Source: an uncultured Pantoea sp. (GTDB lineage: Bacteria > Pseudomonadota > Gammaproteobacteria > Enterobacterales > Enterobacteriaceae). Taken from it: a stretch of DNA of 64,000 nucleotides. Location: NCBI GenBank assembly GCA_913778495.1, contig CAJYVD010000011.1, positions 1-64,000 of the forward strand, given 5' to 3'. The notes beneath the pieces were generated by a model. That model was not told the DNA's origin. It was given only the letters and a program-made list of their open reading frames with translations, and did no database searches. The position numbers and the translations under genes are program-made. Of the stretch, positions 18,734 through 50,199 are shown piece by piece (the first letter of the stretch is position 1; every line of letters starts with the position of its first letter).

Positions 18734-20194
18734 GTGTCTGAATTATCGCAACTTTCCCCGCAACCGCTGTGGGATATTTTTGCCAAAATCTGTTCGATTC
18801 CGCACCCTTCTTATCATGAAGAAGCTTTAGCCGAATACGTGGTCGGCTGGGCAAAAGCACAAGGTTTTTGGGTTGAACGCGATGCGGTCGGTAATATCCT
18901 GATTCGCAAGCCCGCCACCGCTGGCATGGAAAACCGCACGCCAGTGGCGCTGCAAGCGCACTTAGATATGGTGCCGCAGAAGAACAACGACACCGTACAC
19001 GACTTCACAAAAGATCCTATCCAGCCTTACGTCGACGGCGAGTGGGTTAAAGCGCGCGGCACCACGCTGGGCGCGGATAACGGTATTGGTATGGCTTCTG
19101 CGCTCGCGGTATTGGCGGATAACAGCCTGACGCACGGCCCGCTGGAAGTGCTGCTCACCATGACTGAAGAAGCCGGTATGGACGGCGCTTTCGGCCTGCA
19201 ACCTAACTGGCTGCAAGCGGAGATCCTGATCAATACCGATTCCGAAGAAGAAGGCGAGATTTACATGGGCTGCGCCGGCGGTATCGACTTCATCACCACG
19301 CTGCCGCTGAACCGTGAAGCCGTACCTGCCGGTTATGAAACGCTCAAGCTGACGCTGAAAGGATTGAAAGGCGGCCACTCCGGCGCGGATATTCATCTGG
19401 GCCTGGGCAATGCCAACAAGCTGCTGGCGCGTTTCCTTGCCGCGCACGCGCAGGCGCTGGATGTGCGCCTGATCGCCTTTAGCGGCGGCACGCTGCGCAA
19501 CGCCATTCCGCGCGAAGCCTTTGCCACGCTGGCGGTAGAAAGCCATCAGGTCGATGCGCTGAAATCCGCCGCCGCACACTTCCAGGCGACACTGCAAAAC
19601 GAACTCGGCGCCAAAGAGAAGAACATTGTGCTGCTGAGCGAGCCACTGGCGCATCAGGGCCAGGCGTTAACCGCTGACAGCCGCGATCGCTTCATTAACT
19701 TGTTAAACAGCACGCCAAACGGCGTGATCCGCAACTCTGACGTGGCAAAAGGCGTGGTGGAAACCTCGCTCAACGTGGGCGTGGTGACGATGGACGAGGC
19801 ACAGGCGGAGATCATCTGCCTGATTCGTTCGCTGATCGACACCGGCAAAGATTGGGTGGTGGAAACGCTGACGTCGCTGGGCCAGCTGGCAGGCGCGCAA
19901 ACCGCGCCGAAGGGCGGCTATCCGGGCTGGCAGCCAGACGCCGACTCGCCGGTGATGGCGCTGACGCGCAAAACCTATGAAGCGCTGTTTGGCAAAACGC
20001 CTAACATTCAGGTGATCCACGCCGGTCTGGAGTGCGGTCTGTTTAAAAAGCCCTATCCGAATATGGATATGGTCTCGATCGGCCCGACCATTACCGGCCC
20101 GCACTCACCGGATGAGCAGGTGCACATTGAGAGCGTTGGCCTTTACTGGCAACTGCTGACCGCCCTGCTGAAGGTGATGCCGGAGAAGGCGTAA
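18734..20194 (+). CDS. pepD: Cytosol non-specific dipeptidase (aminoacyl-histidine dipeptidase)
   Basis: A 486-residue M20-family zinc dipeptidase (peptidase D/carnosinase) of the cytoplasm. It is collinear with E. coli PepD: IPHPSYHEEALAEYV, the metal-binding ALQAHLDMVPQKNN, GTTLGADNGIGMA, LLTMTEEAGMDGA and INTDSEEEGEIYMGCAGGID, then GLECGLFKKPYPNMDMVSIG. It begins with GTG, as in E. coli, behind CAGGAGACGC. It is the last conserved gene before the accessory island. Confidence 0.98.
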   Translation: MSELSQLSPQPLWDIFAKICSIPHPSYHEEALAEYVVGWAKAQGFWVERDAVGNILIRKPATAGMENRTPVALQAHLDMVPQKNNDTVHDFTKDPIQPYVDGEWVKARGTTLGADNGIGMASALAVLADNSLTHGPLEVLLTMTEEAGMDGAFGLQPNWLQAEILINTDSEEEGEIYMGCAGGIDFITTLPLNREAVPAGYETLKLTLKGLKGGHSGADIHLGLGNANKLLARFLAAHAQALDVRLIAFSGGTLRNAIPREAFATLAVESHQVDALKSAAAHFQATLQNELGAKEKNIVLLSEPLAHQGQALTADSRDRFINLLNSTPNGVIRNSDVAKGVVETSLNVGVVTMDEAQAEIICLIRSLIDTGKDWVVETLTSLGQLAGAQTAPKGGYPGWQPDADSPVMALTRKTYEALFGKTPNIQVIHAGLECGLFKKPYPNMDMVSIGPTITGPHSPDEQVHIESVGLYWQLLTALLKVMPEKA

Positions 20195-20518
20195 GCGATG
20201 CAAATTTGAGGGGGCCTGAGTGGCCCTCTTTTCGTTTGCGGCGGAAAAGTTGCGGACGGGATCTTTCTCACAAAATATCAAACGGAATTCATTATTTTAA
20301 CTCTGCGTTTTTTATCAACGCCGTGCACCTTAACGCGGAAGAGTTTTTAAAAAAACTTTCTTTTCATCATGTTATTTCCCTCTATTTTTTAATTAAAGCA
20401 AACAAGAGCGGCATTCATGCCTCTCTATTAGAAAATCGACTAACTTTACTGTCTAATTTTATTTTCTCGTCCTCGTGATACCGTGCTTTCAATTACCCAC
20501 AGTCGCAAGGAGTGAGTT
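20195..20518. other. Island left boundary, microcin promoter region
   Basis: About 320 bp. The first part holds the pepD terminator; from about 20270 the sequence turns AT-rich, in contrast with pepD. An ATG-initiated open frame here (20206-20478) starts inside the terminator and has no family features. A promoter for the microcin is expected; I could not assign a Fur box or other regulator site. Confidence 0.45.
20208..20236 (+). terminator. Rho-independent terminator of pepD
   Basis: GAGGGGGCC-TGAGT-GGCCCTC followed by TTTTCGTTT, 14 bp past the pepD stop. Confidence 0.8.
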
Positions 20519-20848
20519 ATGAGAACGTTAAGTCCAGAGGAAATGTCTGTTGTAGCAGGCGCGGGAAATTATTCCGATAAGCACGGCCCCGGCAGCGGTA
20601 ACAGCGCCGGAGGCGGTAAAGGCGGGAATTACGGCGGCGTGCCTAAAACCTGTGAAAATCAGGTTGGTGCCGGCATTATTACCGGCATGATAGCGGGCAC
20701 GGTGGGCGGTGCCGCCGGTATCGTGGCAGGCGGGGCACTGGGCGGTGTGTCTGCCGCATTAGGCTCCTGTAATAACAGCCCTTACGGCGGCGGAAAAAAT
20801 TCAGGCAGCAGCTCAGGCAATGCAGGCATTGGCCAATGCCGTTGGTAA
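20519..20848 (+). CDS. Putative class II microcin precursor
   Basis: A 109-residue precursor. Residues 1-15 (MRTLSPEEMSVVAGA) match the double-glycine-type leaders of class II microcins: compare the colicin V leader MRTLTLNELDSVSGG and the microcin E492 leader ending FGA. Cleavage would leave a 94-residue Gly-rich peptide starting GNYSDK, with a hydrophobic glycine-zipper segment (about 49-82), cysteines at 45, 84 and 107, and C-terminus CRW. AAGGAG lies 8 bp before the ATG. Processing and export would need a CvaAB-type peptidase transporter and TolC; none is in this window. A small membrane protein follows directly. Target and activity unknown. Confidence 0.7.
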   Translation: MRTLSPEEMSVVAGAGNYSDKHGPGSGNSAGGGKGGNYGGVPKTCENQVGAGIITGMIAGTVGGAAGIVAGGALGGVSAALGSCNNSPYGGGKNSGSSSGNAGIGQCRW

Positions 20849-20849
20849 T

Positions 20850-21083
20850 ATGGATAACGCTACGCAGAACGGGACGAAAAAACGTGGCTACAGGCGCGCG
20901 CTGATCAATATATTTTGGGTAGCTACCGCCTTCCCAATTATATTTTCTGACGATCCTCAGCGCTACGCGGTAACGGGTAATCCTGTTGCGCTAATTGCTG
21001 ACCTCTTTATCCTTATTGGCATTTATCAATTTTATGCTTTCCTGCTCGATCGTTGCGAAGCGATTTACAAAAAAAGCACTTAA
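20850..21083 (+). CDS. Putative microcin immunity protein
   Basis: A 77-residue protein starting 1 bp after the microcin stop; an in-frame ATG at 20820 would make it 87 residues and overlap the microcin. Neither start has a strong ribosome site, so it is probably coupled to the microcin. A basic N-terminus (TKKRGYRR) precedes two hydrophobic helices (RALINIFWVATAFPIIF and NPVALIADLFILIGIYQFYA), the size and layout of known microcin immunity proteins such as Cvi. I see no residue-level family match; function is inferred from position. Confidence 0.55.
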   Translation: MDNATQNGTKKRGYRRALINIFWVATAFPIIFSDDPQRYAVTGNPVALIADLFILIGIYQFYAFLLDRCEAIYKKST

Positions 21084-21096
21084 TTCGCGTTTTACA

Positions 21097-21121
21097 GCCT
21101 CACGTGTGTGAGGCTTTTTTA
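21097..21121 (+). terminator. Rho-independent terminator of the microcin operon
   Basis: GCCTCAC-GTGT-GTGAGGC (7-bp perfect stem) followed by TTTTTTA, 13 bp after the immunity gene stop. It isolates the two-gene unit from the ABC transporter. Confidence 0.88.
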
Positions 21122-21271
21122 CGTGCTCTCCGCCTCCGCATGCTGATCCTGCGCCAGTAAGACGTCTCCCGATCGGGTGGGTTTTTAGCGTCTGCTTCTC
21201 TCAGGATAAATCGCTGCTTTTTACCGCTTTCCCCCCCTGCTTCTGCCACGTCTGCGCCTCTAGCCAGCTTT

Positions 21272-21303
21272 AGACGCCATTATGTCCAGATGTCTGGATG
21301 GCT
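21272..21303 (+). promoter_or_regulatory. Four tandem MetJ-box-like repeats
   Basis: Four contiguous 8-mers in register: AGACGCCA, TTATGTCC, AGATGTCT, GGATGGCT, against the met box AGACGTCT (5, 4, 7 and 5 of 8 matches). MetJ binds two to five such tandem boxes cooperatively. The array ends 98 bp before the ABC transporter start. The central TCCAGATGTCTGGA is also a perfect palindrome, so another dimeric regulator is an alternative. Confidence 0.5.
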
Positions 21304-21401
21304 AATAAGAATTCGTGCTAGCTTATAGCCTTTCGTTCGTTGCCCGGATAGAGGCTTCAGGAAAAAATGCGACCACGCGAATTAACAACAGGTGCCCGAA
21401 A

Positions 21402-32524: not shown

Positions 32525-34321
32525 TTAGCCTGCTTTAACAGGCAGCAAAATTTTCTTACCCAGGTGCAAGTTGTTTTCAATAATTCTCATTGCCATTTCA
32601 CTTAAATTACGAATACTTTCCTGTAATTTTTCCATCGACTCTTGCATGATTTGCTCCAGCTCAAGTTGCTTCTCACGAATGAACTCCAGCTCTTTAACAG
32701 CCTGCTCTGCCTCTACTTTTGCAAGATTTGCACTTGCCACTTTGGCGTGCGCGATATTTTGCTGCGCGGTATTAGCGAGGCTGCCCAAATCATGCACAAT
32801 ATTGCCAGCCTTAATAAAAGACTGATGCGTATTGGCGTTGAATGACGGCAAAGATTGCAGTGCTTTCTTCGGCATGCCCGCCAGATTTTTTAAAAATTGA
32901 GGAAGGTTTTTAAAAATATTCTTGAGGAGATTTGATGCATGTTTCACTGCACCTTTAACGATATTTTTCATGACTTGAGAAACCGCGCTGCTTCTCAATA
33001 AAAATACCGCAGCAATAACGGCCGCAATGGCCACCAAGGTTTTAACAATCGAGCGAACCTTATCTAACACATCTGCCGGAAGGACTTTCTCAAGTAATTT
33101 TCCTAACGGCGAATGCATTAACAGAAAATCAACCGCTTTTCCGATGGCTTCAATAATCGGCATAATGACCGAATTCATCACCGGCTCAAGCGCTTTACCA
33201 ATAAACGACGTGCCCGTTGCCACCTGGATAATGGCATCCGCCACCGTCATCACAAGCAGTGCCACCGACAGAACCGTCGCGGCGCCCATGGTCACGACCG
33301 CAAGCGCAACGGCAAGCAGCGCGTTAACGATCTTGGAGATACAGTCACTCTTTTTTCTCGACTGCTCACTTTTTTCAAGCTGCTCTTCAGTTTTCTTTGC
33401 TTGGGCCACGCGCGCGCGTCCCGCCATTTCGGTATTAAATTCTGCGCGCTTAAGTTCGTCTTCCGCGCGCAACTTTGTCTCTTCCGCGCGATCTTTAATA
33501 CTTTGATTAATGAAATTTAACAGGCGCAGCGCCAGGTTAAATTGGGCTTTAGATTGTTCTTCAATGAAATCCGTCGACAGCAAGCGGGATTGCTTCTCGC
33601 TATTAAGGGCACTTTCAACAAGGTCGTTGAGGCGAGACTGAATGTTCGTCGCTTTAGCAGCCCATTGCTCTGCACGCCCTTGTGCGGCCTGGCGCGCGGT
33701 TTGCAGGCTGGTCTGCTGGCCTTGTAACTGAGTGAGTTCTTCCATCAGCGCAAGGTAATTGGGGTCATCCGGTGTGACGCCCGCTTGCTGCATTGCGGCC
33801 TGCTTTTGTTTAAGCGTGTTTATCTGCGCCTCAAGCTTGCCGAGCTTACCGTCCAGCTGTTTTACCTGTTCACCCGCCCCTTCCAGCTCGCCGAGAGCGG
33901 CTTCATACTGCTCCATCAACGCATCAAACTGTTCTTTGGTCTGCTGCTTGAACGCACTTACGCCCGCCATAATGGTTTCCATGGCGTTTGTCAGTACATC
34001 TTTACCGCTGGCTTTATCGGCAAGTAAACGGGTCAGCACCGTGTTGATCAGCAGGCGATATTGTTCTGAGGTGCGTGGTTTTTCCGGCGGCGGCGGGCCG
34101 TCAAGAAAAGCCTGTTGTTCCCTATCTTCCAGCGTTTCCCACGCCGCGGACGATAGCAGGGAATCCAGGGCACCTTTGCTGCCACTGCTCTCACCTGCGC
34201 GCATCACTGGCGGATGGTGCAGGCGCTTGGGGTCAACCCGGACGTTAGCATCATCATTAACGTGATTGGTCGCTAATTCAGGGAGTACAGACCTGAGCGA
34301 CTGCATATTTGTTATGTCCAT
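32525..34321 (-). CDS. sipB: Type III translocator SipB/IpaB (SctE)
   Basis: A 598-residue major translocator (Salmonella SipB 593). N-terminal disordered chaperone-binding region (~1-80), a long coiled coil (~130-240, GQQTSLQTARQAAQGRAEQW), then the hydrophobic hairpin: segment 1 about 329-366 (IVNALLAVALAVVTMGAATV) and segment 2 about 427-443, followed by an amphipathic C-terminus. It would form the host-membrane pore with SipC. Begins 16 bp after its chaperone sicA. Confidence 0.93.
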   Translation of the reverse strand: MDITNMQSLRSVLPELATNHVNDDANVRVDPKRLHHPPVMRAGESSGSKGALDSLLSSAAWETLEDREQQAFLDGPPPPEKPRTSEQYRLLINTVLTRLLADKASGKDVLTNAMETIMAGVSAFKQQTKEQFDALMEQYEAALGELEGAGEQVKQLDGKLGKLEAQINTLKQKQAAMQQAGVTPDDPNYLALMEELTQLQGQQTSLQTARQAAQGRAEQWAAKATNIQSRLNDLVESALNSEKQSRLLSTDFIEEQSKAQFNLALRLLNFINQSIKDRAEETKLRAEDELKRAEFNTEMAGRARVAQAKKTEEQLEKSEQSRKKSDCISKIVNALLAVALAVVTMGAATVLSVALLVMTVADAIIQVATGTSFIGKALEPVMNSVIMPIIEAIGKAVDFLLMHSPLGKLLEKVLPADVLDKVRSIVKTLVAIAAVIAAVFLLRSSAVSQVMKNIVKGAVKHASNLLKNIFKNLPQFLKNLAGMPKKALQSLPSFNANTHQSFIKAGNIVHDLGSLANTAQQNIAHAKVASANLAKVEAEQAVKELEFIREKQLELEQIMQESMEKLQESIRNLSEMAMRIIENNLHLGKKILLPVKAG

Positions 34322-38677: not shown

Positions 38678-39720
38678 CAGGTCTCTTCCTCGTCATCCAA
38701 CACATCACGGGCGCCGCGGCGCTGCTGCCCTTGTTTCTCGAACAAATCCAGAGGCGGTGCGTCAGCCTGCTGGATAGCCACGTCCAACCGCTCCAGCACC
38801 TCGCGGCTCGACACCATCGCCGTCACCGGCTGCGGCATCTGCCGCGGAATAAGCAGTTCCACCTGCTTTGCCCCCGTGGGGTCTGTGCGTCGAAACGTAT
38901 AGGTCAGCCGCCGTGAGTCTGAGGGCGGTGCCGATTCGGAGAGCGGTGCGAACGGAGCAGGCGTAGGCATGCTCGCTAATTGGCGCGAAGGACCAAAGTG
39001 GGACGCGGTGGCGTCGACCGTTTGAGGCGACAACGGCCCGGCCATGCCGGTGACGGTTCCACTCTGTAGGAGAGTCGTCGACGCGGGCCGATCCCGTTTT
39101 TCGCTCGCCTGCGTATTGCGCGCGCCGCTTGTTTCCTCGGCAAGCGTCGGATCCGCAGCGCGCGGTAGCGCCACAGTCTCCGGGCTGACCGAAACCACGC
39201 TGGGGTGAAGTGGGATAGCTGCATCTTGCTTGAGCGGGATAGCAGCATCTTGCCTGAGCGAGATGGCGGCATCTTGTCCAGGCGAGATGGCAGTATCTTG
39301 CCTGAGCGGCCTTGCCGCGAGGGATTGCGCGCTCGGCCTGTCCTGGATGGCTTGCCTGGCCTCCATGACCCGCATGTGCTGATTGCCCTGCACGACGTGG
39401 GCGATCTGCCCTGGCTGGCTTATCGGCCTGAGCGGTTTTTCCTGCGCGCCAGCGATCTCCGGCTCGGCGTGATCTCGCCCGCCCCGCTTAACAGCCGTTG
39501 TGGCGGCCTCGGGTGCGGTAAGCGGGCGCCCCAGCCGCGAGGCGGGCTGATGCAGCAGCGCCTGCAAATACGGCGCAGCCGCAGGGATAGATGCATCAGA
39601 CAGGGCCTCCCAACGGCGTTTCTTGTTGGGTTTGATGGCGCTGCTTGTTTCGTCTTGGGCCGCATCCGGGCGATCGCACGGCAGACGTAACGTGGAAAGG
39701 GTTAACGTGGCCAACTGCAT
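38677..39720 (-). CDS. invJ: Needle-length regulator InvJ/SpaN (SctP)
   Basis: A 347-residue Pro/Ala/Gln-rich secreted protein in the invJ/spa32 position. Little of the sequence is conserved except the C-terminal hydrophilic domain (VELLIPRQMPQPVTAMVSSR), as usual for needle-length regulators. It carries four tandem 8-residue repeats (141-172, QDAAI core). It would end needle/inner-rod export and trigger the SpaS switch. Overlaps invI by 19 bp and spaO by 1 bp. Confidence 0.8.
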   Translation of the reverse strand: MQLATLTLSTLRLPCDRPDAAQDETSSAIKPNKKRRWEALSDASIPAAAPYLQALLHQPASRLGRPLTAPEAATTAVKRGGRDHAEPEIAGAQEKPLRPISQPGQIAHVVQGNQHMRVMEARQAIQDRPSAQSLAARPLRQDTAISPGQDAAISLRQDAAIPLKQDAAIPLHPSVVSVSPETVALPRAADPTLAEETSGARNTQASEKRDRPASTTLLQSGTVTGMAGPLSPQTVDATASHFGPSRQLASMPTPAPFAPLSESAPPSDSRRLTYTFRRTDPTGAKQVELLIPRQMPQPVTAMVSSREVLERLDVAIQQADAPPLDLFEKQGQQRRGARDVLDDEEET

Positions 39721-40154
39721 TGCTCCTCTATTTCATCGTCAATCTGATTCTGTAATCGCCGCGTTGCCTGGCGACGAAGATCGCGGGCGCGCAGTTCAAG
39801 TCGCTGCTGCCGTCGCTCAAGCGCCTGCCGCGCCGTGCTTGCCTGACTGCGCGTCTGCTCAACCTCACTTTGCTGCTGCCGTAGCGCCTCCTGCTCCAGC
39901 ATCAAGGTCGCCATTTTGCGGCGTAGCGTGGCCTGCCGGGCTTTCTGTTCCAGGATGGCCTCACGGTGGGTTTCGCCATCGCAAACGAAGCTCTGCGACA
40001 GCTGTTGCGCCGCCTGATGCGCCTGTTCCAGCGCGGTAATACGCGCAGAGATGGCCGCCGTTTGTTGTTGACAGCGGTGAAGAATCTGCGTCTGTTTATG
40101 GATGCGGCGCTCGGCGCTGGCGCGGACTTTCTGTAATTTATTGCGTAAGGTCAT
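39702..40154 (-). CDS. invI: Type III stalk protein InvI/SpaM (SctO)
   Basis: A 150-residue, almost wholly alpha-helical protein (coiled coil with many Q, R and E), matching InvI (147). SctO proteins link the ATPase to the export gate. Start at 40154 lies inside the end of invC (17-bp overlap), giving the N-terminus MTLRNKLQKVRASAERR. Confidence 0.85.
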   Translation of the reverse strand: MTLRNKLQKVRASAERRIHKQTQILHRCQQQTAAISARITALEQAHQAAQQLSQSFVCDGETHREAILEQKARQATLRRKMATLMLEQEALRQQQSEVEQTRSQASTARQALERRQQRLELRARDLRRQATRRLQNQIDDEIEEQCSWPR

Positions 40155-41430
40155 ACAGCCTCTGCAAGCTATGCTCGACGGAAACAGCATCTGACCGGGA
40201 CTGACACAGAAACGCGCGATAAGCAGGCATCAGAGCGTAAAGCCTGTCGTTCTCCTCCTGTTGCCCAGGCTGATACTCCCCAAACTCGATCAGCGTTTGC
40301 AGCGCCTCCATTTGGGACAGGATCTGACGAAATTGACCGGCGCGATCCAGATGCGCGGGCTGGCACACGCGTGTGCTCACGCGGCTGAGGCTGCGTAATA
40401 CGTCGATGGCGGGATAGTGGTTAGCGGCTGCTAATTTGCGGCTCAACAGGATATGACCATCCAGAATCGATCGGATCTCTTCGGCTACCGGATCGCTCTC
40501 ATCTTCGCTTTCCATCAGGATGGTGAAGAATGCCGTAATGCTGCCCTGCTGCGTGACGCCCGGGCGCTCCAGCAGCGCAGGCAGTCGTTCAAACACCGAG
40601 GCGGGATAGCCGCGCCGCGCGGGCGGCTCCCCCGTCAGCAGCGCGACATCGCGAAGCGCGCGCGCATAGCGCGACACGGAATCCAAAAACAGCACCACGT
40701 GCTTGCCTCGATCGCGAAAATATTCCGCTATCGTCATGGCGATCAGCGCGGCGTTCATTCTGTCGGCGGCGGAAAAATCGGAGGTGGCATACACCACAAC
40801 GCAGCGCCCAGCATGAGGGGACGCGCGCAGCGCCTCGGTAAACTCGGTGACTTCACGTCCACGCTCGCCAATCAGCGCCACCACGAAAATGTCAGCGCTG
40901 GCCTGATTGATGATCATCTCCATGAGCGTGGTCTTTCCGCATCCGGCCGCCGCAAAGATCCCCATACGCTGCCCGCGCCCGCAAGGAATCAGCGCGTCGA
41001 TCGCGCGCACGCCGGTGAAAAACGGGTCGGTGATATTTACGCGCTGGTGAAAGCATGGCGGCGGAGCGTTGATGTCGCGCGTCTCCTGCTCAAAAACGTC
41101 ACCCGCGTCTGCCAGCCGTGCGACCACCTCGCCGGTGGCCGCGATCACCGCACCTTGCAGCTGCGTAGAGAGCGTTAGAGTAAAGCCTTTGCCCGTTGGG
41201 CTAACGACTGCGTCACGCGTCAGCCCATCTGCGGAACCGAGCAGGCTGAGCAGCGCGGAATCAGATTGCAGGCTTAACACCACGGCTCGGGCGGTGACGG
41301 TGTTATCCCGCCAGCTACGGTAAATCTCGCATACCTCTCCGATGCGCAAATGCCGGAGCGGCACTTCAATTAATGCACCGGTTATGCGCAGAGGATGCGC
41401 CTCACAGCGCATCAGTGCATCCAGAGACAT
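40138..41430 (-). CDS. invC: Type III secretion ATPase InvC (SctN)
   Basis: A 430-residue F1-beta-like ATPase. Walker A: GIFAAAGCGKTTLM (about 157-170); Walker B-type VVLFLDSVSRYARA; also VVALIGERGREVTEF. It unfolds and releases chaperoned substrates at the export gate as a hexamer. Same length as Salmonella InvC (431). Overlaps invB by 1 bp (TAATG). Confidence 0.97.
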   Translation of the reverse strand: MSLDALMRCEAHPLRITGALIEVPLRHLRIGEVCEIYRSWRDNTVTARAVVLSLQSDSALLSLLGSADGLTRDAVVSPTGKGFTLTLSTQLQGAVIAATGEVVARLADAGDVFEQETRDINAPPPCFHQRVNITDPFFTGVRAIDALIPCGRGQRMGIFAAAGCGKTTLMEMIINQASADIFVVALIGERGREVTEFTEALRASPHAGRCVVVYATSDFSAADRMNAALIAMTIAEYFRDRGKHVVLFLDSVSRYARALRDVALLTGEPPARRGYPASVFERLPALLERPGVTQQGSITAFFTILMESEDESDPVAEEIRSILDGHILLSRKLAAANHYPAIDVLRSLSRVSTRVCQPAHLDRAGQFRQILSQMEALQTLIEFGEYQPGQQEENDRLYALMPAYRAFLCQSRSDAVSVEHSLQRLYDLTQ

Positions 41431-41846: not shown

Positions 41847-43913
41847 TTAATTAACAGATTTAATGACGTCGATGTTGATACTTTCGGTTATTTCGCCAAA
41901 AGAGAGCACTTCAAGATTGCGATATTTATTCTCAATAAACCTTTTCACAAAGCGCCGAATATCCACGGCGGTAAGAATGACGTAATCTTTCTGCGACATA
42001 AGGATGTCTCCGAGTGCCACATCAAACCGGTCTAAAATGAACTCTGCTACTTCGGGCTCCAGATTGAGAAAAGTCCCACCTGATGTTGAGCGAACACCTT
42101 TACGTACTGTTTCTTCTAACTCTTGCGAAATCAGTACCACTCGCAGGGTATTTTGTACGGAAAACTTATGGCTAATGTAACGAGAGAGCGCGCCACGCGT
42201 ATGCTCGACTAAATTAATAAAGTCTTTTTCTTTCGACGCCCAAAACGCCAGAGACTCAATAATAAGCTTGGTATTTCTTACCGATATTTTTTCGTTCACT
42301 AATCGTTGTAAGACTTCGGCAATACGTTGCACTGTGGCATTACGCGTTGCCTCTTTGACTAATTCGGGATAATCCTTTTCCAGTTTATCAAGATGGCTTT
42401 TGGTTTCTTGCACGCCAAAATATTCATTGACGTTTCTCACCAGCGTGGTTGACAGGCTGTAATACAATTCATCAACCGCGCTGCGCGTTAAATAGCCCAA
42501 CTCTTGTAGCTGATCGTAGTGGTCTGGTGAGGTCCACAGCACATTGTCTTGATTGCGTATGTCTATGCCCAACTGCGTAAGCTCGTCAGAGCCGTTGATG
42601 ATCGTGATGTGATCAAAATGAATCTGGTATTTGTCGGCCTGAATCTCATTGATCAGCAGTGTCACGTCATGCGGTGCGTAACGATCGGAAGGTTTGACGA
42701 GGAGCGGCGGTAAATGGATACCGTAATCAATAAAAAACTGGCTGCGAAAGCGCTCATTCGCGCGTAAGCGCTTGAGATCGGCGGCCACCTGACGATTGAC
42801 CACCAGCATCAGCGGAATGGTCACAGGCGTCACATCATCAAGATTGTCAATTAAGCCGAGCCGCGTTTCGTTGCCCCCTACCGCATCGTCATGGCCAGTG
42901 GAGGCAGGCTCCAACGCGGACTCGGGCGAGGCTGATGCGGGCCGAGCCGCCTGACGTGCCTGATAAAGCTTATAAAAACCAAGTCCGCCGGGGATCAGCG
43001 CCAGCAGCAGGAAAATCAGAAAGGGAAAACCGGGCAACATGCCGACCATCAACGCGATGAGCGCGGCGATAAACAGCACAAAATTATTACTGAGCAACTG
43101 CGACATCATGGTTGATCCCATGTTGTTCCCTTCGCCGCTGACCCGCGTCACGATAAAGCCCGCACTGATGGCAATAAGAAGCGAGGGAATTTGCGCCACT
43201 AATCCGTCACCGATAGTGAGCATGGTATACACCGACAGCGCGGTAGAAACATCCATGCCGTGCTGGCTAATACCCACGCTGATGCCGCCAATAAAATTAA
43301 TAAAAATGACGATAATGCCGGCAATCGCATCACCTTTAATAAACTTCATTGCGCCATCAAAAGAGCCGTAAAGCTGGCTCTCTTTTTCCAATATTGAGCG
43401 TCGTTGCGTCGCTTGTTCAGCCGTGATCGCTTCCGCGCGTAAGTCAGCATCAATGCTCATCTGTTTTCCCGGCATTCCATCCAAAGAAAAGCGCGCCGCC
43501 ACTTCCGCCACGCGTTCTGCCCCTTTGGTTATCACCAGAAACTGCACAATGGTCACGATGGCAAAAATTACAAAGCCCACCACCAGGTTGTCGCCGATGA
43601 CAAACAAGCCAAAGGTCGCGATGATGTCACCCGCGTCGGCATCATTCAGGATCAAGCGGCTGGTGCTGATGGAGAGCGCCAGACGGAACAAGGTGGTGAT
43701 TAATAACACCGCCGGAAAAGAGGAAAAGCTAAGAATTCTGTCGATATAAAAAGAAGACAAAAAAACCAGCGCTGAAATAACGATATTCAAGCCAATCAGG
43801 AAATCCACTAACACTGTTGGCAGCGGAATCACCAGCATCGCAATAACAGTTACCATCAAAAGCAAAATAAATAGCTCAGGGTGCGATTTTATTTTTCCTA
43901 AAAAATGATTCAT
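41847..43913 (-). CDS. invA: Type III export gate protein InvA (SctV)
   Basis: A 688-residue FlhA-family protein: about seven to eight membrane helices in the first ~330 residues, including the conserved cytoplasmic loop VAARFSLDGMPGKQMSIDAD (FHIPEP region), and a large C-terminal cytoplasmic domain forming a nonameric ring. Lengths and motifs are those of InvA (685). Confidence 0.97.
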   Translation of the reverse strand: MNHFLGKIKSHPELFILLLMVTVIAMLVIPLPTVLVDFLIGLNIVISALVFLSSFYIDRILSFSSFPAVLLITTLFRLALSISTSRLILNDADAGDIIATFGLFVIGDNLVVGFVIFAIVTIVQFLVITKGAERVAEVAARFSLDGMPGKQMSIDADLRAEAITAEQATQRRSILEKESQLYGSFDGAMKFIKGDAIAGIIVIFINFIGGISVGISQHGMDVSTALSVYTMLTIGDGLVAQIPSLLIAISAGFIVTRVSGEGNNMGSTMMSQLLSNNFVLFIAALIALMVGMLPGFPFLIFLLLALIPGGLGFYKLYQARQAARPASASPESALEPASTGHDDAVGGNETRLGLIDNLDDVTPVTIPLMLVVNRQVAADLKRLRANERFRSQFFIDYGIHLPPLLVKPSDRYAPHDVTLLINEIQADKYQIHFDHITIINGSDELTQLGIDIRNQDNVLWTSPDHYDQLQELGYLTRSAVDELYYSLSTTLVRNVNEYFGVQETKSHLDKLEKDYPELVKEATRNATVQRIAEVLQRLVNEKISVRNTKLIIESLAFWASKEKDFINLVEHTRGALSRYISHKFSVQNTLRVVLISQELEETVRKGVRSTSGGTFLNLEPEVAEFILDRFDVALGDILMSQKDYVILTAVDIRRFVKRFIENKYRNLEVLSFGEITESINIDVIKSVN

Positions 43914-43922
43914 GATGCTTAG

Positions 43923-45074
43923 TTACCTACCTGATGTTGTGTTTTTCAACCCAGCAAGATCCTGTTGCAGATTGAAAAAATTCTCGAGTAAAGCGTCTCG
44001 ATCCTGCTGGTTATGAAATATCGTCAAGGGCATCTTTTTTAATTCGATTAATAACCATTGCAATAATTGCGAGACCTCAATAACAGAAGCAACCCGCAAA
44101 AATTCGCCCGCCACGTCTTGCAACGCATCATAAAGCGCCTGAGGATTATCCAGTGCACGCATTAAAAAAAGCAGCCACTCTTCTTCTGGTTTATTTAAAA
44201 TTTGAATAAACGTCTCGCCACTGATTAAACGTACAAAGCTTACGTCACAGGTGCGGATCACTTTTACTTGTGTTAATCGTCCGTATAAATCACCAAACTC
44301 AACAATATTGCAACTTGGTTGATAGGCATCCATGTCGGTGAGTAACGCCGCCTCAATAAAATCGATTAAGACATGGCGACGATCGGTGCCATAACTGGTA
44401 AGCCAGCGCCTATAAAGCGTTAATTCATTCTCGTCACTTTGAATAAAATCGCGATAAGCCTGCCGCACAGAGGCAGGGGTCATGTGCAGCTTACGCCCAA
44501 AAATTCGCGCTTTTAGCGCCACGTTCAACCCGGCGCGCGTGGGTTTTTCCTCACACGTCGCTTCCGCCTGCGCCAGCGCTTCGCTGACATCCTCCAGTTC
44601 CTGAGGATGAGCCTTACATCGCTTCAGCAACACGCGTAGCGCAGCGATCAAGCAACTGCTATCGGCAAAGCGCCGTTGCGCCTCCTGCAACAACAAGGCG
44701 GGTCGGCCACGCGCCTCGACGCGAAGCACCCGCATCAACGCATCAAGCTTTTCATCAGCGTCCTCGTCAAGAATCGCGTCAGTGCCGCTGTCGGTCAGCA
44801 GCGCCGTGCGGCGTTCCATATCGCGTCGGTTGCGAATCTGCGTGACCAGCGCACTCAGTTCATCCACGGTATCCAGCAGGTTGCGCGGTAGAATGCCGCC
44901 CTCTTCTTCGGTCTGCTGGCCCGCGTCGGTTGCCTTCTCCGCTGAGCGCGTCGCGCTGGCCTCAAGTGAATTGTCTGCGCCGCGTTGACGCGCCTGGCGC
45001 GCTTCACGCTGATGCTGACCGGACGCCGACGGTAAAGGTCTTGGCGTTACGGCATGCGGGCGTTCGATTGCCAT
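43923..45074 (-). CDS. invE: Type III gatekeeper InvE/MxiC (SctW)
   Basis: A 383-residue cytoplasmic gatekeeper (Salmonella InvE 372) that holds back effectors until translocators are secreted. The disordered N-terminus is followed by helical X-bundle repeats; RNLLDTVDELSALVTQIRNR and GLNVALKARIFGRKLHMTP fit the family. Overlaps invG by 28 bp. Confidence 0.92.
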   Translation of the reverse strand: MAIERPHAVTPRPLPSASGQHQREARQARQRGADNSLEASATRSAEKATDAGQQTEEEGGILPRNLLDTVDELSALVTQIRNRRDMERRTALLTDSGTDAILDEDADEKLDALMRVLRVEARGRPALLLQEAQRRFADSSCLIAALRVLLKRCKAHPQELEDVSEALAQAEATCEEKPTRAGLNVALKARIFGRKLHMTPASVRQAYRDFIQSDENELTLYRRWLTSYGTDRRHVLIDFIEAALLTDMDAYQPSCNIVEFGDLYGRLTQVKVIRTCDVSFVRLISGETFIQILNKPEEEWLLFLMRALDNPQALYDALQDVAGEFLRVASVIEVSQLLQWLLIELKKMPLTIFHNQQDRDALLENFFNLQQDLAGLKNTTSGR

Positions 45075-46750
45075 GCTTTGCCTGCCAGCAGGTTATCCAT
45101 CCAGTCAAACATGTCGCCATTGAGTGACTTTCCGCGCAGAGCCTGCATCATGCCGACGTTTTCCGGAATGAACTGAGCCACGATCTCCTTGGGTTGTATC
45201 AGGAAAACGCGTACCAGCGACGCTTGCTTTTGAGATTGATAGCGAAAGAGTCCACCAATCAACGGAATGCTACGCATGCCGGGAATACCGGTCCGCGTTT
45301 CGCTGTTTTCCTGTCGCGTATAACCGCCAATTAGCAAACTTTTGCCTTTAGGGACGCGTGCAATCGTGCTGATGGTGGTGCGACCTACTTCGGGCAGCAG
45401 TTCCGGATCGCTCGCATTGGTGATCTGATTGCCGTCCTCCACGCTGAGTAACAACTCGATCTCCTGGTCAGCGCTGAAGCGAGGCAGCACGCTAATTGCC
45501 GTGCCGTAGGTCACATGCTCCAGGTTGCTGGTGCGCTCGCCCACCAATTTGGTATAAAAGGTGCGGTTGTTGTCGAACACCGCCGGAATGTTCTCCTGCG
45601 TCAGGATCATGGGGCGAGACACAATATTAGCCTTTTGCTCTTTTGCCAGCGCCGTTACCGCCGCCATAAAGCTCGCGCCGTCTACGGTGCTGGAGCCGCC
45701 GTTAAACGACACCGCCAGCTGCCGTCCTAGATTCAGTGAGCCATTTAATGAAACCCCCAGCTGATCAAGCTGCTCCTTTTGCAGATCAACGATCCAGACC
45801 GACATTTCAACGTGCCGTCTTGGCATATCCAGTAAGGCAATCAACTGCTGAAGGCTGCGCACCTGTTCGGCGCTACCGCGCACTAACAGGCTGTTATTGT
45901 CCTGATTCGCCACCACTACTACCGGTTCCTGCGCACGCCGTCCGTTGGGGCTAAAAGGGGTGAGTAAAGCCGGTGGAATATTCGCCGCCTCAGGAAACAG
46001 AGCGCGCACGGTGTCGATACGCTGCTGCGGGCTGGACGACTCTGCAGGCTGTTCCACAGACACCACCCGATCGGCGGTGACGTCGGCTTTTCCAATCAGT
46101 TTTTCAATCACGGTTGCCATGCCGGGAATCACCACTTGTTCATCGCGGTAGCGGTAGGTCCGATCGCTCACAAAGGTATTTTTGAGGGGAATGACGTGCA
46201 GCGATATTCCGCTGTACGTGGCTTGACCTTTACTATCAAGCACAGCGGCAACATCTTTGATCAGGCTCACATACACAGGCGGGCCGGACACGTAAAAGGT
46301 GTGGCTGGTGTTATCTGTGCGCATCGGATAGCGTTCGTCATACAAGCCGGACGACATGAGAAAATTACGCACGGTGACGGGGGCAACCCTATTTAATGAA
46401 ACAAGCGTGCTTTTTATCTCTGATGCATCATAAATAAACAGGCTTTGTCCGTCGTCGTAACTGATTAGCCCCATGCGTTGACTGACACGCTCGACCAACG
46501 CGATCGGATTGGCCAAGTCGAAGTGACCGCTAATCCGTTTTTTTAATGCCGCATTACTGACAATCACGGGCCGTTTGAGTTTTGCTGACACGGCGTCGAA
46601 AAACGTGCGCACGGTGTCTTTTTCAGCCACATAGCGGTCAGTGCTTTCACTCATGTTTTTATCGGTTTCTTGAACTTCCGCAGCAATAGAACAAGAAGAA
46701 GCAATGATAAAAATAATAAAAATCGCAGATTGCCACGAAAAAATATTCAT
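45047..46750 (-). CDS. invG: Type III secretin InvG (SctC)
   Basis: A 567-residue outer-membrane secretin (Salmonella InvG 562). Signal peptide ends near SSCSIAAEV. N0/N1 domains (TFFDAVSAKLKRPVIVSNAA; VRNFLMSSGLYDERYP) precede the beta-barrel with VGRTTISTIARVPKGKSLLI and TRTGIPGMRSIPLIGGLFRY. No obvious InvH pilotin is encoded; the lipoprotein at 50378 may serve. Overlaps invF by ATGA. Confidence 0.97.
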   Translation of the reverse strand: MNIFSWQSAIFIIFIIASSCSIAAEVQETDKNMSESTDRYVAEKDTVRTFFDAVSAKLKRPVIVSNAALKKRISGHFDLANPIALVERVSQRMGLISYDDGQSLFIYDASEIKSTLVSLNRVAPVTVRNFLMSSGLYDERYPMRTDNTSHTFYVSGPPVYVSLIKDVAAVLDSKGQATYSGISLHVIPLKNTFVSDRTYRYRDEQVVIPGMATVIEKLIGKADVTADRVVSVEQPAESSSPQQRIDTVRALFPEAANIPPALLTPFSPNGRRAQEPVVVVANQDNNSLLVRGSAEQVRSLQQLIALLDMPRRHVEMSVWIVDLQKEQLDQLGVSLNGSLNLGRQLAVSFNGGSSTVDGASFMAAVTALAKEQKANIVSRPMILTQENIPAVFDNNRTFYTKLVGERTSNLEHVTYGTAISVLPRFSADQEIELLLSVEDGNQITNASDPELLPEVGRTTISTIARVPKGKSLLIGGYTRQENSETRTGIPGMRSIPLIGGLFRYQSQKQASLVRVFLIQPKEIVAQFIPENVGMMQALRGKSLNGDMFDWMDNLLAGKAWQSNARMP

Positions 46751-48699: not shown

Positions 48700-50199
48700 T
48701 TAAAAACCCTTTTCTTCAGAAGCGCTACTCTCTGATACATGAATCACGCTACCCAAGGGACGCGCATGCGCACGGCACCGATTGAGCCAGACATATATGG
48801 TATCGACCAGTTCGCAGTGATAGCGATGGGGTTTAATTGCAGAGAGAGCCTGCTCACACTCGTGAAATTTTTCTCGTTTATGAAATAAGATCACCAGCAG
48901 TGCATCCAGAATAATATCGCAAGAAGATTCACGGTATTTGAGTGAGACGGCATAATCCAAAGCCGCTTCGTGCTCTTCCAATAAAAACCTGACGATAACT
49001 AATAGGATGTGCGCGGAAAAATAATCCGGCTTCAGTGCAATTGCCATGTCTAAATGGCTTTTTGCACTTTCAAGTTTTCCCTCAATAAGCAGATAGCACG
49101 CATAAAAGTAATAAACCCCAGCCGCTCCCGGCGAGAGAATTAAGGCAATATGTAGCTCAGAAGCCCGACTCTCTGCCATATCAGGCCAAAATACCGTGCG
49201 CATAAGTACCGCCTGCTCACTGCCGGGATCGGTAATGATTATTTTTTCAATAATCTTGAGAATGATCTCCGTGGCTTTAGCCTGCTCTATAACGTTCAAG
49301 GCAGATAAGGCTACATAGCACCCAACCAAGTCATATAGCGTAGGCGCATCAAATCGGTGATCGCGATTAGAGGTAGGGGTGCAATGTGCGTCATGATTGA
49401 CGTTGAAAAGTGGCGGCGGAGATGACGCGGACCGCAGCGCTAATTCATTGCCCGCCACTTTTTTAATGGACTGAGCAAAATGTTTGTTTTTTTCTTCTCT
49501 AACGTTATCAAGCATTCGTGCAAGTGAATGCCGCAAAGTTAGGGCATTCTTTACCGGGTCGCGGCTGATGATAAATTGATGCTTTGCGGCAACCTGTAAT
49601 GTATTGCTGTAGACGAGCTCGATGCAAAGCAACACTTTTCCCTCAATGCACTGGCATGTACCTGAAAGAAAGTAATGTGCCCCCGCTTCGCGCAAAAAAG
49701 CATAACCTGGATCATCTTCACTCAACATAGATGTCAAATTGCTCGACATCATGACGAATCCTTTTTGTGATAAAACCGCGCTGAGATCGGGGATGGCATT
49801 CAAAATAGAAAGTAATACTCCCTCTTCACCTTTTAAAGGATAGAGAGCAATAACCTCTTTCTCGAATACATCCCTGCCGTCGCTATCACAAGGAGAGTGC
49901 ACAATCGGGCAAATAAAGCGGTAACCTTTCCCGTATATTGTTTCAATATAACGCAGCTTCGAGGATTCCCTTAGTATTTTCCGTAAATTATAAATGCAAC
50001 GGGTTAGCGATTCATCTGTGACGTTATCCGAATGCCAAACACCACGGATAATTTCATGCTTAGTCACGAGCTTTCCCGCGTGCTGGAGTAATAAATTTAA
50101 CACAGCAAGTTCCTTAGGTGGAACCCTGAGCAGGCGTTTATCCCGATATAGCATATGTTCATCACAGAGCAGATAAGGGCCGAAGCGATAATCTTTCAT
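48700..50199 (-). CDS. hilA: HilA-like master regulator (winged helix + TPR)
   Basis: A 499-residue OmpR/ToxR-type activator (Salmonella HilA 553). N-terminal winged helix: YRFGPYLLCDEHMLYRDKR, LLRVPPKELAVLNLLLQHAG, DESLTRCIYNLRKILRE, YIETIYGKGYRFICP (residues ~1-105). A middle domain and C-terminal TPR-like helices (about 340-470) follow. In SPI-1 HilA switches on prg/org and inv/spa. It is separated from the lipoprotein gene upstream by 178 AT-rich bp, which must hold its promoter. No HilC/HilD genes are nearby. Confidence 0.9.
   Translation of the reverse strand: MKDYRFGPYLLCDEHMLYRDKRLLRVPPKELAVLNLLLQHAGKLVTKHEIIRGVWHSDNVTDESLTRCIYNLRKILRESSKLRYIETIYGKGYRFICPIVHSPCDSDGRDVFEKEVIALYPLKGEEGVLLSILNAIPDLSAVLSQKGFVMMSSNLTSMLSEDDPGYAFLREAGAHYFLSGTCQCIEGKVLLCIELVYSNTLQVAAKHQFIISRDPVKNALTLRHSLARMLDNVREEKNKHFAQSIKKVAGNELALRSASSPPPLFNVNHDAHCTPTSNRDHRFDAPTLYDLVGCYVALSALNVIEQAKATEIILKIIEKIIITDPGSEQAVLMRTVFWPDMAESRASELHIALILSPGAAGVYYFYACYLLIEGKLESAKSHLDMAIALKPDYFSAHILLVIVRFLLEEHEAALDYAVSLKYRESSCDIILDALLVILFHKREKFHECEQALSAIKPHRYHCELVDTIYVWLNRCRAHARPLGSVIHVSESSASEEKGF

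What the first reader, a model, noticed from the sequence alone, without database searches (positions are those of the whole stretch)
20519..21083. Possible new class II microcin with its immunity gene
The precursor has a textbook class II leader (MRTLSPEEMSVVAGA), a Gly-rich core with a glycine-zipper segment and three cysteines. It is followed at 1 bp by a small two-helix membrane protein and a terminator, forming an isolated toxin/immunity unit. No transporter is encoded nearby, so it must use one encoded elsewhere. The core sequence is not one I recognise.
Basis: partly seen in the sequence, partly recalled or inferred. Interest (0 to 1): 0.75.

Follow-up and report, generated by a model that had tools for sequence, protein, structure and literature searches.

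The report
Two-gene microcin cassette, exporter elsewhere
A Pantoea bacterium carries a compact two-gene unit that probably makes a small secreted protein for killing related bacteria, plus its own antidote, and it appears to rely on an export machine encoded elsewhere in the genome; it is a new relative of E. coli microcins PDI and S, and its activity is untested.

Summary
ORF1 (20519-20848, 109 aa) has a GA-type class II leader and three Cys; ORF2 (20850-21083, 77 aa) starts 1 bp later and is a predicted two-helix membrane protein; a terminator-like hairpin follows. It is not chance: both genes are conserved in Pantoea sp. Mb-10 (94% and 81% aa identity, dN/dS 0.05 and 0.26). Of 22 Pantoea loci read where a sugar-ABC gene follows pepD, 20 have only 266-363 bp between; the window and Mb-10 alone hold the extra ~0.9 kb.

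A profile of the family, built without them, matches the microcin S precursor (E 1.1e-9) and a protein with the published Cys and cleavage positions of McpM, the microcin PDI precursor (E 1.8e-11). The genome has one detected C39-peptidase ABC exporter with an HlyD partner, on another contig.

Best reading: a class IIa (no siderophore tail) MccPDI/MccS-like microcin with its immunity gene, exported in trans. Its immunity protein is not detectably related to McpI, and across the family immunity tracks the toxin core, not the leader. Cleavage, export, killing and immunity are inferred. Class II microcins of Pantoea and Erwinia, and microcins away from their exporter in Serratia, are already published: a new member of a known kind.

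The parts
20507..20512 (+). ribosome-binding site AAGGAG of ORF1
   Evidence: read directly
20519..20848 (+). microcin precursor gene (109 aa)
   Evidence: ORF; one of 35 family precursors; dN/dS 0.051 against Mb-10; profile link to McpM-like and McsS proteins
20519..20563 (+). predicted 15-aa leader MRTLSPEEMSVVAGA, cleavage expected after Gly14-Ala15
   Evidence: M1, L4, E8, G14 and A15 invariant in 6 Pantoea sequences, the window's included; cleavage is inferred
20651..20770 (+). central Gly-zipper region bracketed by Cys45 and Cys84; proposed membrane-active, immunity-matched part
   Evidence: in alignment A5 Cys45 is shared by 12 of 12 sequences and Cys84 by 11 of 12; Cys45 aligns with Cys57 of the McpM-like protein, while Cys84 lies 7 columns beyond its Cys90; region differs with immunity type
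20771..20845 (+). Gly/Ser/Asn-rich tail ending GQCRW; proposed receptor/uptake part
   Evidence: ending [GA]QCx[WR] in 11 of 12 sequences of A5 and 11 of 14 of A1; role inferred from published microcin modularity
20850..21083 (+). proposed immunity gene, 77 aa, two predicted transmembrane helices
   Evidence: paired with precursors in relatives; dN/dS 0.255
21096..21115 (+). terminator-like hairpin followed by a T run
   Evidence: a similar hairpin is visible in Mb-10
20208..20230 (+). terminator-like hairpin after pepD, separating the cassette from pepD
20195..21401 (.). enlarged pepD-to-sugar-ABC interval holding the cassette; about 0.9 kb longer than empty sites
   Evidence: interval 266-363 bp in 20 of the 22 fetched loci where the ABC gene follows pepD (30 loci fetched)

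Best explanation
ORF1 encodes a class IIa (non-siderophore) microcin precursor of the MccPDI/MccS-like superfamily and ORF2 its immunity protein. The leader is expected to be recognised and cut after Gly14-Ala15 by the C39-peptidase ABC exporter encoded with an HlyD-type adaptor on another contig, which with TolC secretes the ~94-aa core. A Cys45-Cys84 disulfide would clamp a Gly-zipper helical hairpin; the C-terminal tail would bind an outer-membrane receptor (a porin, if it works like MccPDI), and the hairpin would disrupt the inner membrane of related bacteria. ORF2, in the producer's inner membrane, would block this. Shown: gene structure, conservation, purifying selection, presence as a compact extra unit in two genomes, profile similarity to MccPDI/MccS-type precursors, an exporter in the genome. 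Inferred: cleavage, export, disulfide, uptake route, killing, immunity.
For: Leader and ORFs. Profile A1 of 14 family members, none of them McpM or McsS: McpM-like L099 E 1.8e-11, McsS L098 1.1e-9. Core-only model: McpM-like 32.5 bits, McsS 18.7, against a best of 6.7 among 3,000 shuffled decoys. L099 has Gly17-Gly18, Gly35-Ala36 and Cys57/90/109/118, the positions published for McpM. Of 35 precursors, 26 are followed by an ORF with at least 2 hydrophobic segments (control 10 of 555). Core and immunity diverge together (Mantel r 0.446, 0 of 5000 permutations, 26 pairs), leader and immunity do not (r 0.058, 1204 of 5000). The genome's C39 exporter keeps the QTEAAECG, NHF and DPASG motifs; a strongly supported clade around it includes exporters about 2.6 kb from family precursors in G004 and G031. 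In 61 Pantoea genomes, 11 of 12 with a strong precursor hit have a C39 gene against 23 of 49 others (Fisher p 0.005). Purifying selection on both genes.
Against: No activity data. The window precursor against the McpM-like protein directly is not significant (phmmer E 0.37; McsS 51): the link runs through intermediates, and composition bias is large in these Gly-rich sequences (bias 16-28 bits in the core searches). Public models match the family only below cut-off (E492_microcin 3 of 14 members, best E 0.048; Bacteriocin_IIc 4 of 14, best E 0.014) and not the window peptide. ORF2 is not detectably related to McpI. MccS immunity was mapped to a 216-aa CAAX-family protein, not the small ORF, and a review describes McpI as a self-associating cytoplasmic complex, so the membrane-immunity role of ORF2 rests on pairing and hydropathy. 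Three Cys leave one unpaired, and Cys84 does not fall on McpM's Cys90 in the alignment. The precursor model is poor (pLDDT 42.9). One strong precursor hit (G015, with an internal stop) is in a genome without a C39 gene.
Confidence: 0.8

Rival explanations
1. The pair is kept mainly for ORF2: an 'orphan immunity' cassette that protects against relatives' microcin while the precursor is a leftover.
For: No linked exporter; the genome's only detected C39 exporter, and its orthologue in Mb-10 (C21), have no family precursor beside them.
Against: The precursor is the more constrained of the two (dN/dS 0.051 against 0.255), with leader, cysteines and C-terminus intact.
Confidence: 0.08
2. ORF1 is a double-glycine signalling peptide or other secreted effector, and ORF2 a membrane sensor or partner.
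For: C39 exporters also carry signalling peptides (abstract of PMC7018657 in the listing). Residues 4-17 of ORF1 weakly match a lantibiotic model (E 0.015), and one of 14 members weakly matches the pheromone model BlpC (E 0.16).
Against: Long Gly-zipper core, profile similarity to microcin S and McpM, core-immunity co-divergence, only two genes in the cassette.
Confidence: 0.06
3. Siderophore-type class IIb microcin needing tailoring enzymes.
For: Gly/Ser-rich C-terminal region.
Against: The chain ends in CRW, not the Gly/Ser siderophore motif described for class IIb (papers), and contains Cys, which class IIb generally lacks. Tailoring genes were not searched for in the genome.
Confidence: 0.03
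4. Gly-rich structural or surface protein with a chance leader-like N-terminus.
For: One of 14 members matches a Gly-zipper Pfam model weakly (E 0.033).
Against: Leader conserved in homologues of several genera with different cores, paired immunity ORFs, exporter linkage in several relatives.
Confidence: 0.03

Closest known systems
Microcin PDI (McpM/McpI, E. coli)
   Same: Gly-Gly/Ala leader, central Gly-zipper flanked by two Cys, Cys near the C-terminus, small hydrophobic ORF directly downstream; significant family-profile similarity
   Different: the small ORF of the MccPDI-type cluster is not detectably related to ORF2; that cluster has a CPBP-protease gene and linked exporter, absent beside the window cassette; exporters 38% identical; no evident second leader
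Microcin S (McsS, E. coli G3/10 pSYM1)
   Same: related precursor, same cluster type
   Different: published immunity is a 216-aa CAAX-family protein (passages); linked exporter, 39% identical; plasmid-borne
Pantoea/Erwinia class II microcin candidates of Morton et al. 2026 (PMC13174018; candidate methods, results and discussion sections read)
   Same: same host group; GG/GA/GS leaders; some have MccPDI-like C-termini and adjacent candidate immunity ORFs
   Different: the six they describe most closely have MccH47-like N-terminal parts and linked exporters (one lacks a nearby adaptor); whether the window peptide is in their list could not be checked (supplements not readable)
Serratia marcescens class II microcins (PMC13101503; passages)
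   Same: two microcins (SM020, SM064) lie at other genome locations than the exporter locus
   Different: different host; sequence relationship not tested

Membership tests
Class II microcin | 15-18 aa leader ending GG or GA (definition: PMC10233263, passage) | tested here: met
   15 aa ending GA, conserved in homologues
Class II microcin | C39-peptidase ABC exporter (PCAT) and membrane fusion protein in the genome | tested here: met
   one C39 exporter and an HlyD-type protein on contig C35, Cys/His/Asp motifs present; unlinked
Class II microcin | adjacent small immunity protein with transmembrane helix | tested here: met
   ORF2, by sequence and model only; protection not tested
Class II microcin | antibacterial activity | not testable with these tools
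   needs assay
Class II microcin | match to a curated Pfam/NCBIfam bacteriocin or microcin model | tested here: not met
   P0001: no Pfam match up to E 10, one NCBIfam match far below cut-off. Not treated as defining, because known class II microcins themselves diverge strongly
Class IIa rather than IIb | no C-terminal Gly/Ser siderophore motif; Cys present | tested here: met
   ends GQCRW; Cys45/84/107
MccPDI/MccS-like precursor family | significant similarity to McpM/McsS including the core | tested here: met
   through the family profile; not by direct pairwise comparison (E 0.37 and 51)
MccPDI/MccS-like precursor family | two Cys flanking the hydrophobic Gly-zipper (McpM Cys57/Cys90, required) | tested here: met
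   Cys45 and Cys84 flank it; Cys45 aligns with Cys57, Cys84 is 7 columns from Cys90; disulfide not tested
MccPDI proper | McpI-type immunity protein | tested here: not met
   window-type against McpI-like-type profiles: hhalign probability 0.2%
MccPDI proper | linked CPBP protease, HlyD and PCAT genes | tested here: not met
   cassette holds two genes; neighbours are pepD and a sugar ABC transporter
MccPDI proper | second leader cleavage (Gly35/Ala36) | tested here: inconclusive
   no evident counterpart by eye, but the linker is Gly-rich
MccPDI proper | OmpF-dependent uptake | not testable with these tools
   needs mutants

The most novel reading that the evidence does not exclude
Pantoea and Erwinia carry a plug-in microcin arsenal: compact two-gene cassettes scattered in the chromosome, with a common leader and C-terminal Cys motif around an exchangeable toxin core that changes together with its immunity gene, exported in trans by a shared C39 exporter. 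The window cassette is one such unit, found as a clean extra segment between pepD and a sugar-transport operon, with an immunity family unrelated to McpI.
Probability: 0.35. Interest if true: 0.6.

Novelty: new member of a known kind. Interest (0 to 1): 0.42.

Why it matters
It adds an Erwiniaceae branch with its own immunity type to the MccPDI/MccS group, whose target and immunity mechanism are poorly understood. Precursors with similar leaders but different cores come with different immunity families, even in one genome: Ca. Pantoea haifensis has four cassettes, with leaders 73% identical between its window-type and its three other copies. This makes it testable which part of such a microcin its immunity protein reads. 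Pantoea includes plant commensals and biocontrol strains, so its bacteriocins are of practical interest.

Tried and rejected
Pfam, NCBIfam and plasmid searches with the window sequences found nothing usable. The genome-contig scan with the wide alignment A1 failed for lack of conserved stretches and was run with the narrower A3. I suspected that the 216-aa CAAX-family immunity of MccS was a misassignment and that the overlooked 65-aa ORF was the real one. Mapping the published primers on pSYM1 does not support this: the pAZ8 primer anneals at 2465-2482 of L098, at the last codons of the small ORF (2273-2470), and pAZ8 still gave immunity; the forward primer of pAZ13 was not among the passages seen. 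Structure prediction of the precursor was uninformative (pLDDT 42.9), so no fold search was run. Searches of the genome with PF10439 and NF051486 found no other microcin; these models also miss the window peptide, so this says little. The order-wide search with the immunity alignment A6 matched 1 of 394 genomes, the window's own (at most 13 candidates per genome were scored). Rows dropped: 9 of 35 precursors were left out (near-duplicates, a truncated one, no immunity ORF at the threshold); one search used 32 of 35 with one mis-cut leader (L011) and gave core-immunity r 0.437 (0 of 5000), leader-immunity r 0.004 (2326 of 5000), and leader-core r 0.282 (8 of 5000). In one search, 16 of 18 exporter loci entered the tree; L054 and L055 did not pass the motif filter.

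Full report
What is there. ORF1 (20519-20848) encodes 109 aa with leader MRTLSPEEMSVVAGA and cysteines at 45, 84 and 107; ORF2 (20850-21083) encodes 77 aa. The pair sits between pepD (18734-20194) and a sugar ABC transporter (from 21402), with a terminator-like hairpin on each side (20208-20230 and 21096-21115). The region upstream of ORF1 is AT-rich (39% G+C against 58.5% in pepD and 53% in the window; ORF1 58%, ORF2 44%). Among 646 ORFs of 28-249 aa in the window, only ORF1 matches the family profile (E up to 0.5) or a leader pattern.

Where it comes from. The nearest carrier, G058, is Pantoea sp. Mb-10 by that criterion: precursor 94% identical, immunity 81%, PepD 98.8%. Searching 60 genus genomes with the end of PepD gave 59 with a match; 30 loci were fetched. 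In 22 of these 30 the sugar-ABC gene lies within 1.5 kb downstream: 20 with an interval of 266-363 bp, too short for the cassette, and 2 (window and Mb-10) with about 1.2 kb holding it; 8 lack the ABC gene there. So the cassette is a compact insertion, or a unit lost elsewhere. Boundary repeats were not searched for beyond reading the alignment. Between window and Mb-10, dN/dS is 0.051 (precursor) and 0.255 (immunity); pepD 0.031, ABC 0.042.

The family. Searching 295 genomes of the family with the precursor gave 11 with a match, own included; 61 genus genomes with the 14-member profile A1 gave 16 at E 0.01 or better; the named genome collection gave 11 loci in Pantoea and Erwinia. From the loci held, 35 distinct precursors passed E 1e-4 with A1 (14 of them built it); 26 are followed by an ORF with at least 2 hydrophobic segments, against 10 of 555 random ORFs, and 32 by one with at least 1, for which no control was run. 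'Immunity ORF' here means the most hydrophobic candidate ORF, which favours finding one; the control used the same rule.

Link to known microcins. An Enterobacter asburiae plasmid carries a relative upstream of a CAAX-family protease, HlyD and C39 ABC genes. Its exporter region led to E. coli plasmid pSYM1 of strain G3/10, the microcin S plasmid, and to a plasmid of strain M8 whose 120-aa precursor has Gly17-Gly18, Gly35-Ala36 and Cys57/90/109/118, as published for McpM (PMC5311971, passages). I take it as McpM or a very close variant; that is inference from these positions. The A1 profile, which holds neither, scores them at E 1.8e-11 (McpM-like) and 1.1e-9 (McsS). With leaders removed the scores are 32.5 and 18.7 bits, against a best of 6.7 among 3,000 shuffled decoys; with a model from the six closest Pantoea sequences only, core scores are 12.7 and 15.8 against a decoy best of 6.9; composition bias is large in all of these. 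The window peptide alone does not reach significance against the McpM-like protein (E 0.37) or McsS (E 51) but does against the Enterobacter protein (E 1.7e-10). In the alignment Cys45 falls on McpM's Cys57, while Cys84 is 7 columns beyond Cys90. Membership in the MccPDI/MccS-like family is therefore supported through intermediates.

The exporter. The genome has one Peptidase_C39 match, in a 734-aa ABC exporter on contig C35 with an HlyD-type gene beside it. The motifs QTEAAECG, NHFVV and DPASG are present. No family precursor lies in the 19.5 kb read around it. Its orthologue in Mb-10 (C21) is 89% identical and has no family precursor in the 16 kb read. In the tree of 16 exporters it groups (0.997) with those of G034 and G049, 69% identical and 28-30 kb from precursors; these join the exporters of G004 and G031, 66-68% identical and about 2.6 kb from family precursors, at 0.738, or at 1.00 once the G010:C15 exporter is included. 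The MccPDI-type and MccS exporters are only 38-39% identical. Of 16 strong precursor hits in 12 Pantoea genomes, 4 lie within 10 kb of a C39 gene, 11 do not although the genome has one, and 1 (with an internal stop) is in a genome without one. Eleven of the 12 genomes have a C39 gene against 23 of the other 49 (Fisher p 0.005; with the looser 16-genome set 13 of 16 against 21 of 45, p 0.016). These tests ignore phylogeny, and the C39 count includes distant ones.

Pairing of core and immunity. The immunity proteins fall into types: the window's (type A; Pantoea, Erwinia and one unnamed genus, L010) and one related to the small ORFs of the MccPDI-type and MccS clusters (type B; profile E 2.6e-11 and 5.4e-12), with no detectable similarity between A and B (hhalign probability 0.2%); a further group near type B was left apart. 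Over 26 non-redundant pairs, core distance correlates with immunity distance (r 0.446, 0 of 5000 permutations), leader distance does not (r 0.058, 1204 of 5000), and the last 22 residues do so weakly (r 0.148, 281 of 5000). Leader and core are not fully independent (r 0.282, 8 of 5000). In the 12-sequence alignment A5, identity between types in the Cys45-Cys84 region is 0.30 against 0.40 and 0.48 within types (8 of 5000 label permutations), while leader identity does not separate the types (1292 of 5000); linker (0.21 against 0.35 and 0.35) and tail (0.35 against 0.46 and 0.42) also differ somewhat. Two of the type labels there (L024, L028) were set by eye, and permutations ignore phylogeny. 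Ca. Pantoea haifensis (G005) alone carries four cassettes, L021 of type A, L022 and L027 of type B by profile and L024 by eye, and a single C39 match, at least 0.95 Mb away. These points fit a modular plan: leader for the exporter, core for target and immunity, C-terminus for uptake; that the tail also varies with type is against a strict version. Published work describes an N-terminal target part and a C-terminal receptor part in MccV and MccH47 (PMC13174018, results section).

Mechanism and limits. I propose export in trans, a Cys45-Cys84 clamp as in McpM, where the first two Cys are needed, uptake through an outer-membrane receptor, inner-membrane damage, and protection by ORF2. Nothing beyond the genes is shown. 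Against an easy reading of ORF2: MccS immunity was mapped to the 216-aa CAAX-family protein (PMC3316575, passages), and my mapping of the printed primers agrees that clone pAZ8 began at the last codons of the small ORF; a review calls McpI a multimeric cytoplasmic complex (PMC6795089, passages). That mcpI is the gene next to mcpM is inferred from a remark on polar effects (PMC5311971).

Novelty. Class II microcins have been mined across Enterobacterales (PMC9746304, passages and one section) and in Pantoea, Erwinia and Xanthomonas, with 23 screened and 12 inhibitory in at least one trial (PMC13174018); microcins away from the exporter locus are noted in Serratia (PMC13101503, passages). Verified class II immunity proteins show no obvious mutual similarity, so a new immunity type alone does not make a new kind. 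My paper searches showed no description of this cassette in listings or passages seen, but supplements could not be read. Verdict: a real, well-supported new member of a known kind, with an interesting modular, exporter-in-trans setting.

Noticed in passing
about 32-50 kb of the window, minus strand: Type III secretion genes of SPI-1 type: FHIPEP (41847-43913), SPI-1 secretin (45047-46750), HrpJ-like (43923-45074), SseC-like (32525-34321), SPAM-like protein (39702-40190), and a protein with a winged-helix regulator domain (48700-50199) (10 ORFs scanned).
   Followed up: partly
L021, L022, L024, L027 (Ca. Pantoea haifensis, one contig): Four microcin/immunity cassettes of this family in one genome, none within 10 kb of the single C39 match.
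   Followed up: partly
L098 2273-2470 (E. coli pSYM1): An unannotated 65-aa hydrophobic ORF between mcsS and the published immunity gene, related to the small ORF next to the McpM-like gene. As printed, the primers listed for pAZ9 (mcsS) map to 2202-2488, over this ORF, suggesting a label swap in the paper's primer table.
   Followed up: partly
L055 (G058:C20): A second family precursor in the Mb-10 genome, beside an exporter gene lying in two frames.
   Followed up: no
L062 7082-7381, L064 8845-9090, L067 4707-5081: Other leader-bearing small ORFs beside C39 exporters in Pantoea, with weak matches to the family profile (E 4e-6, 0.053, 0.0047).
   Followed up: no
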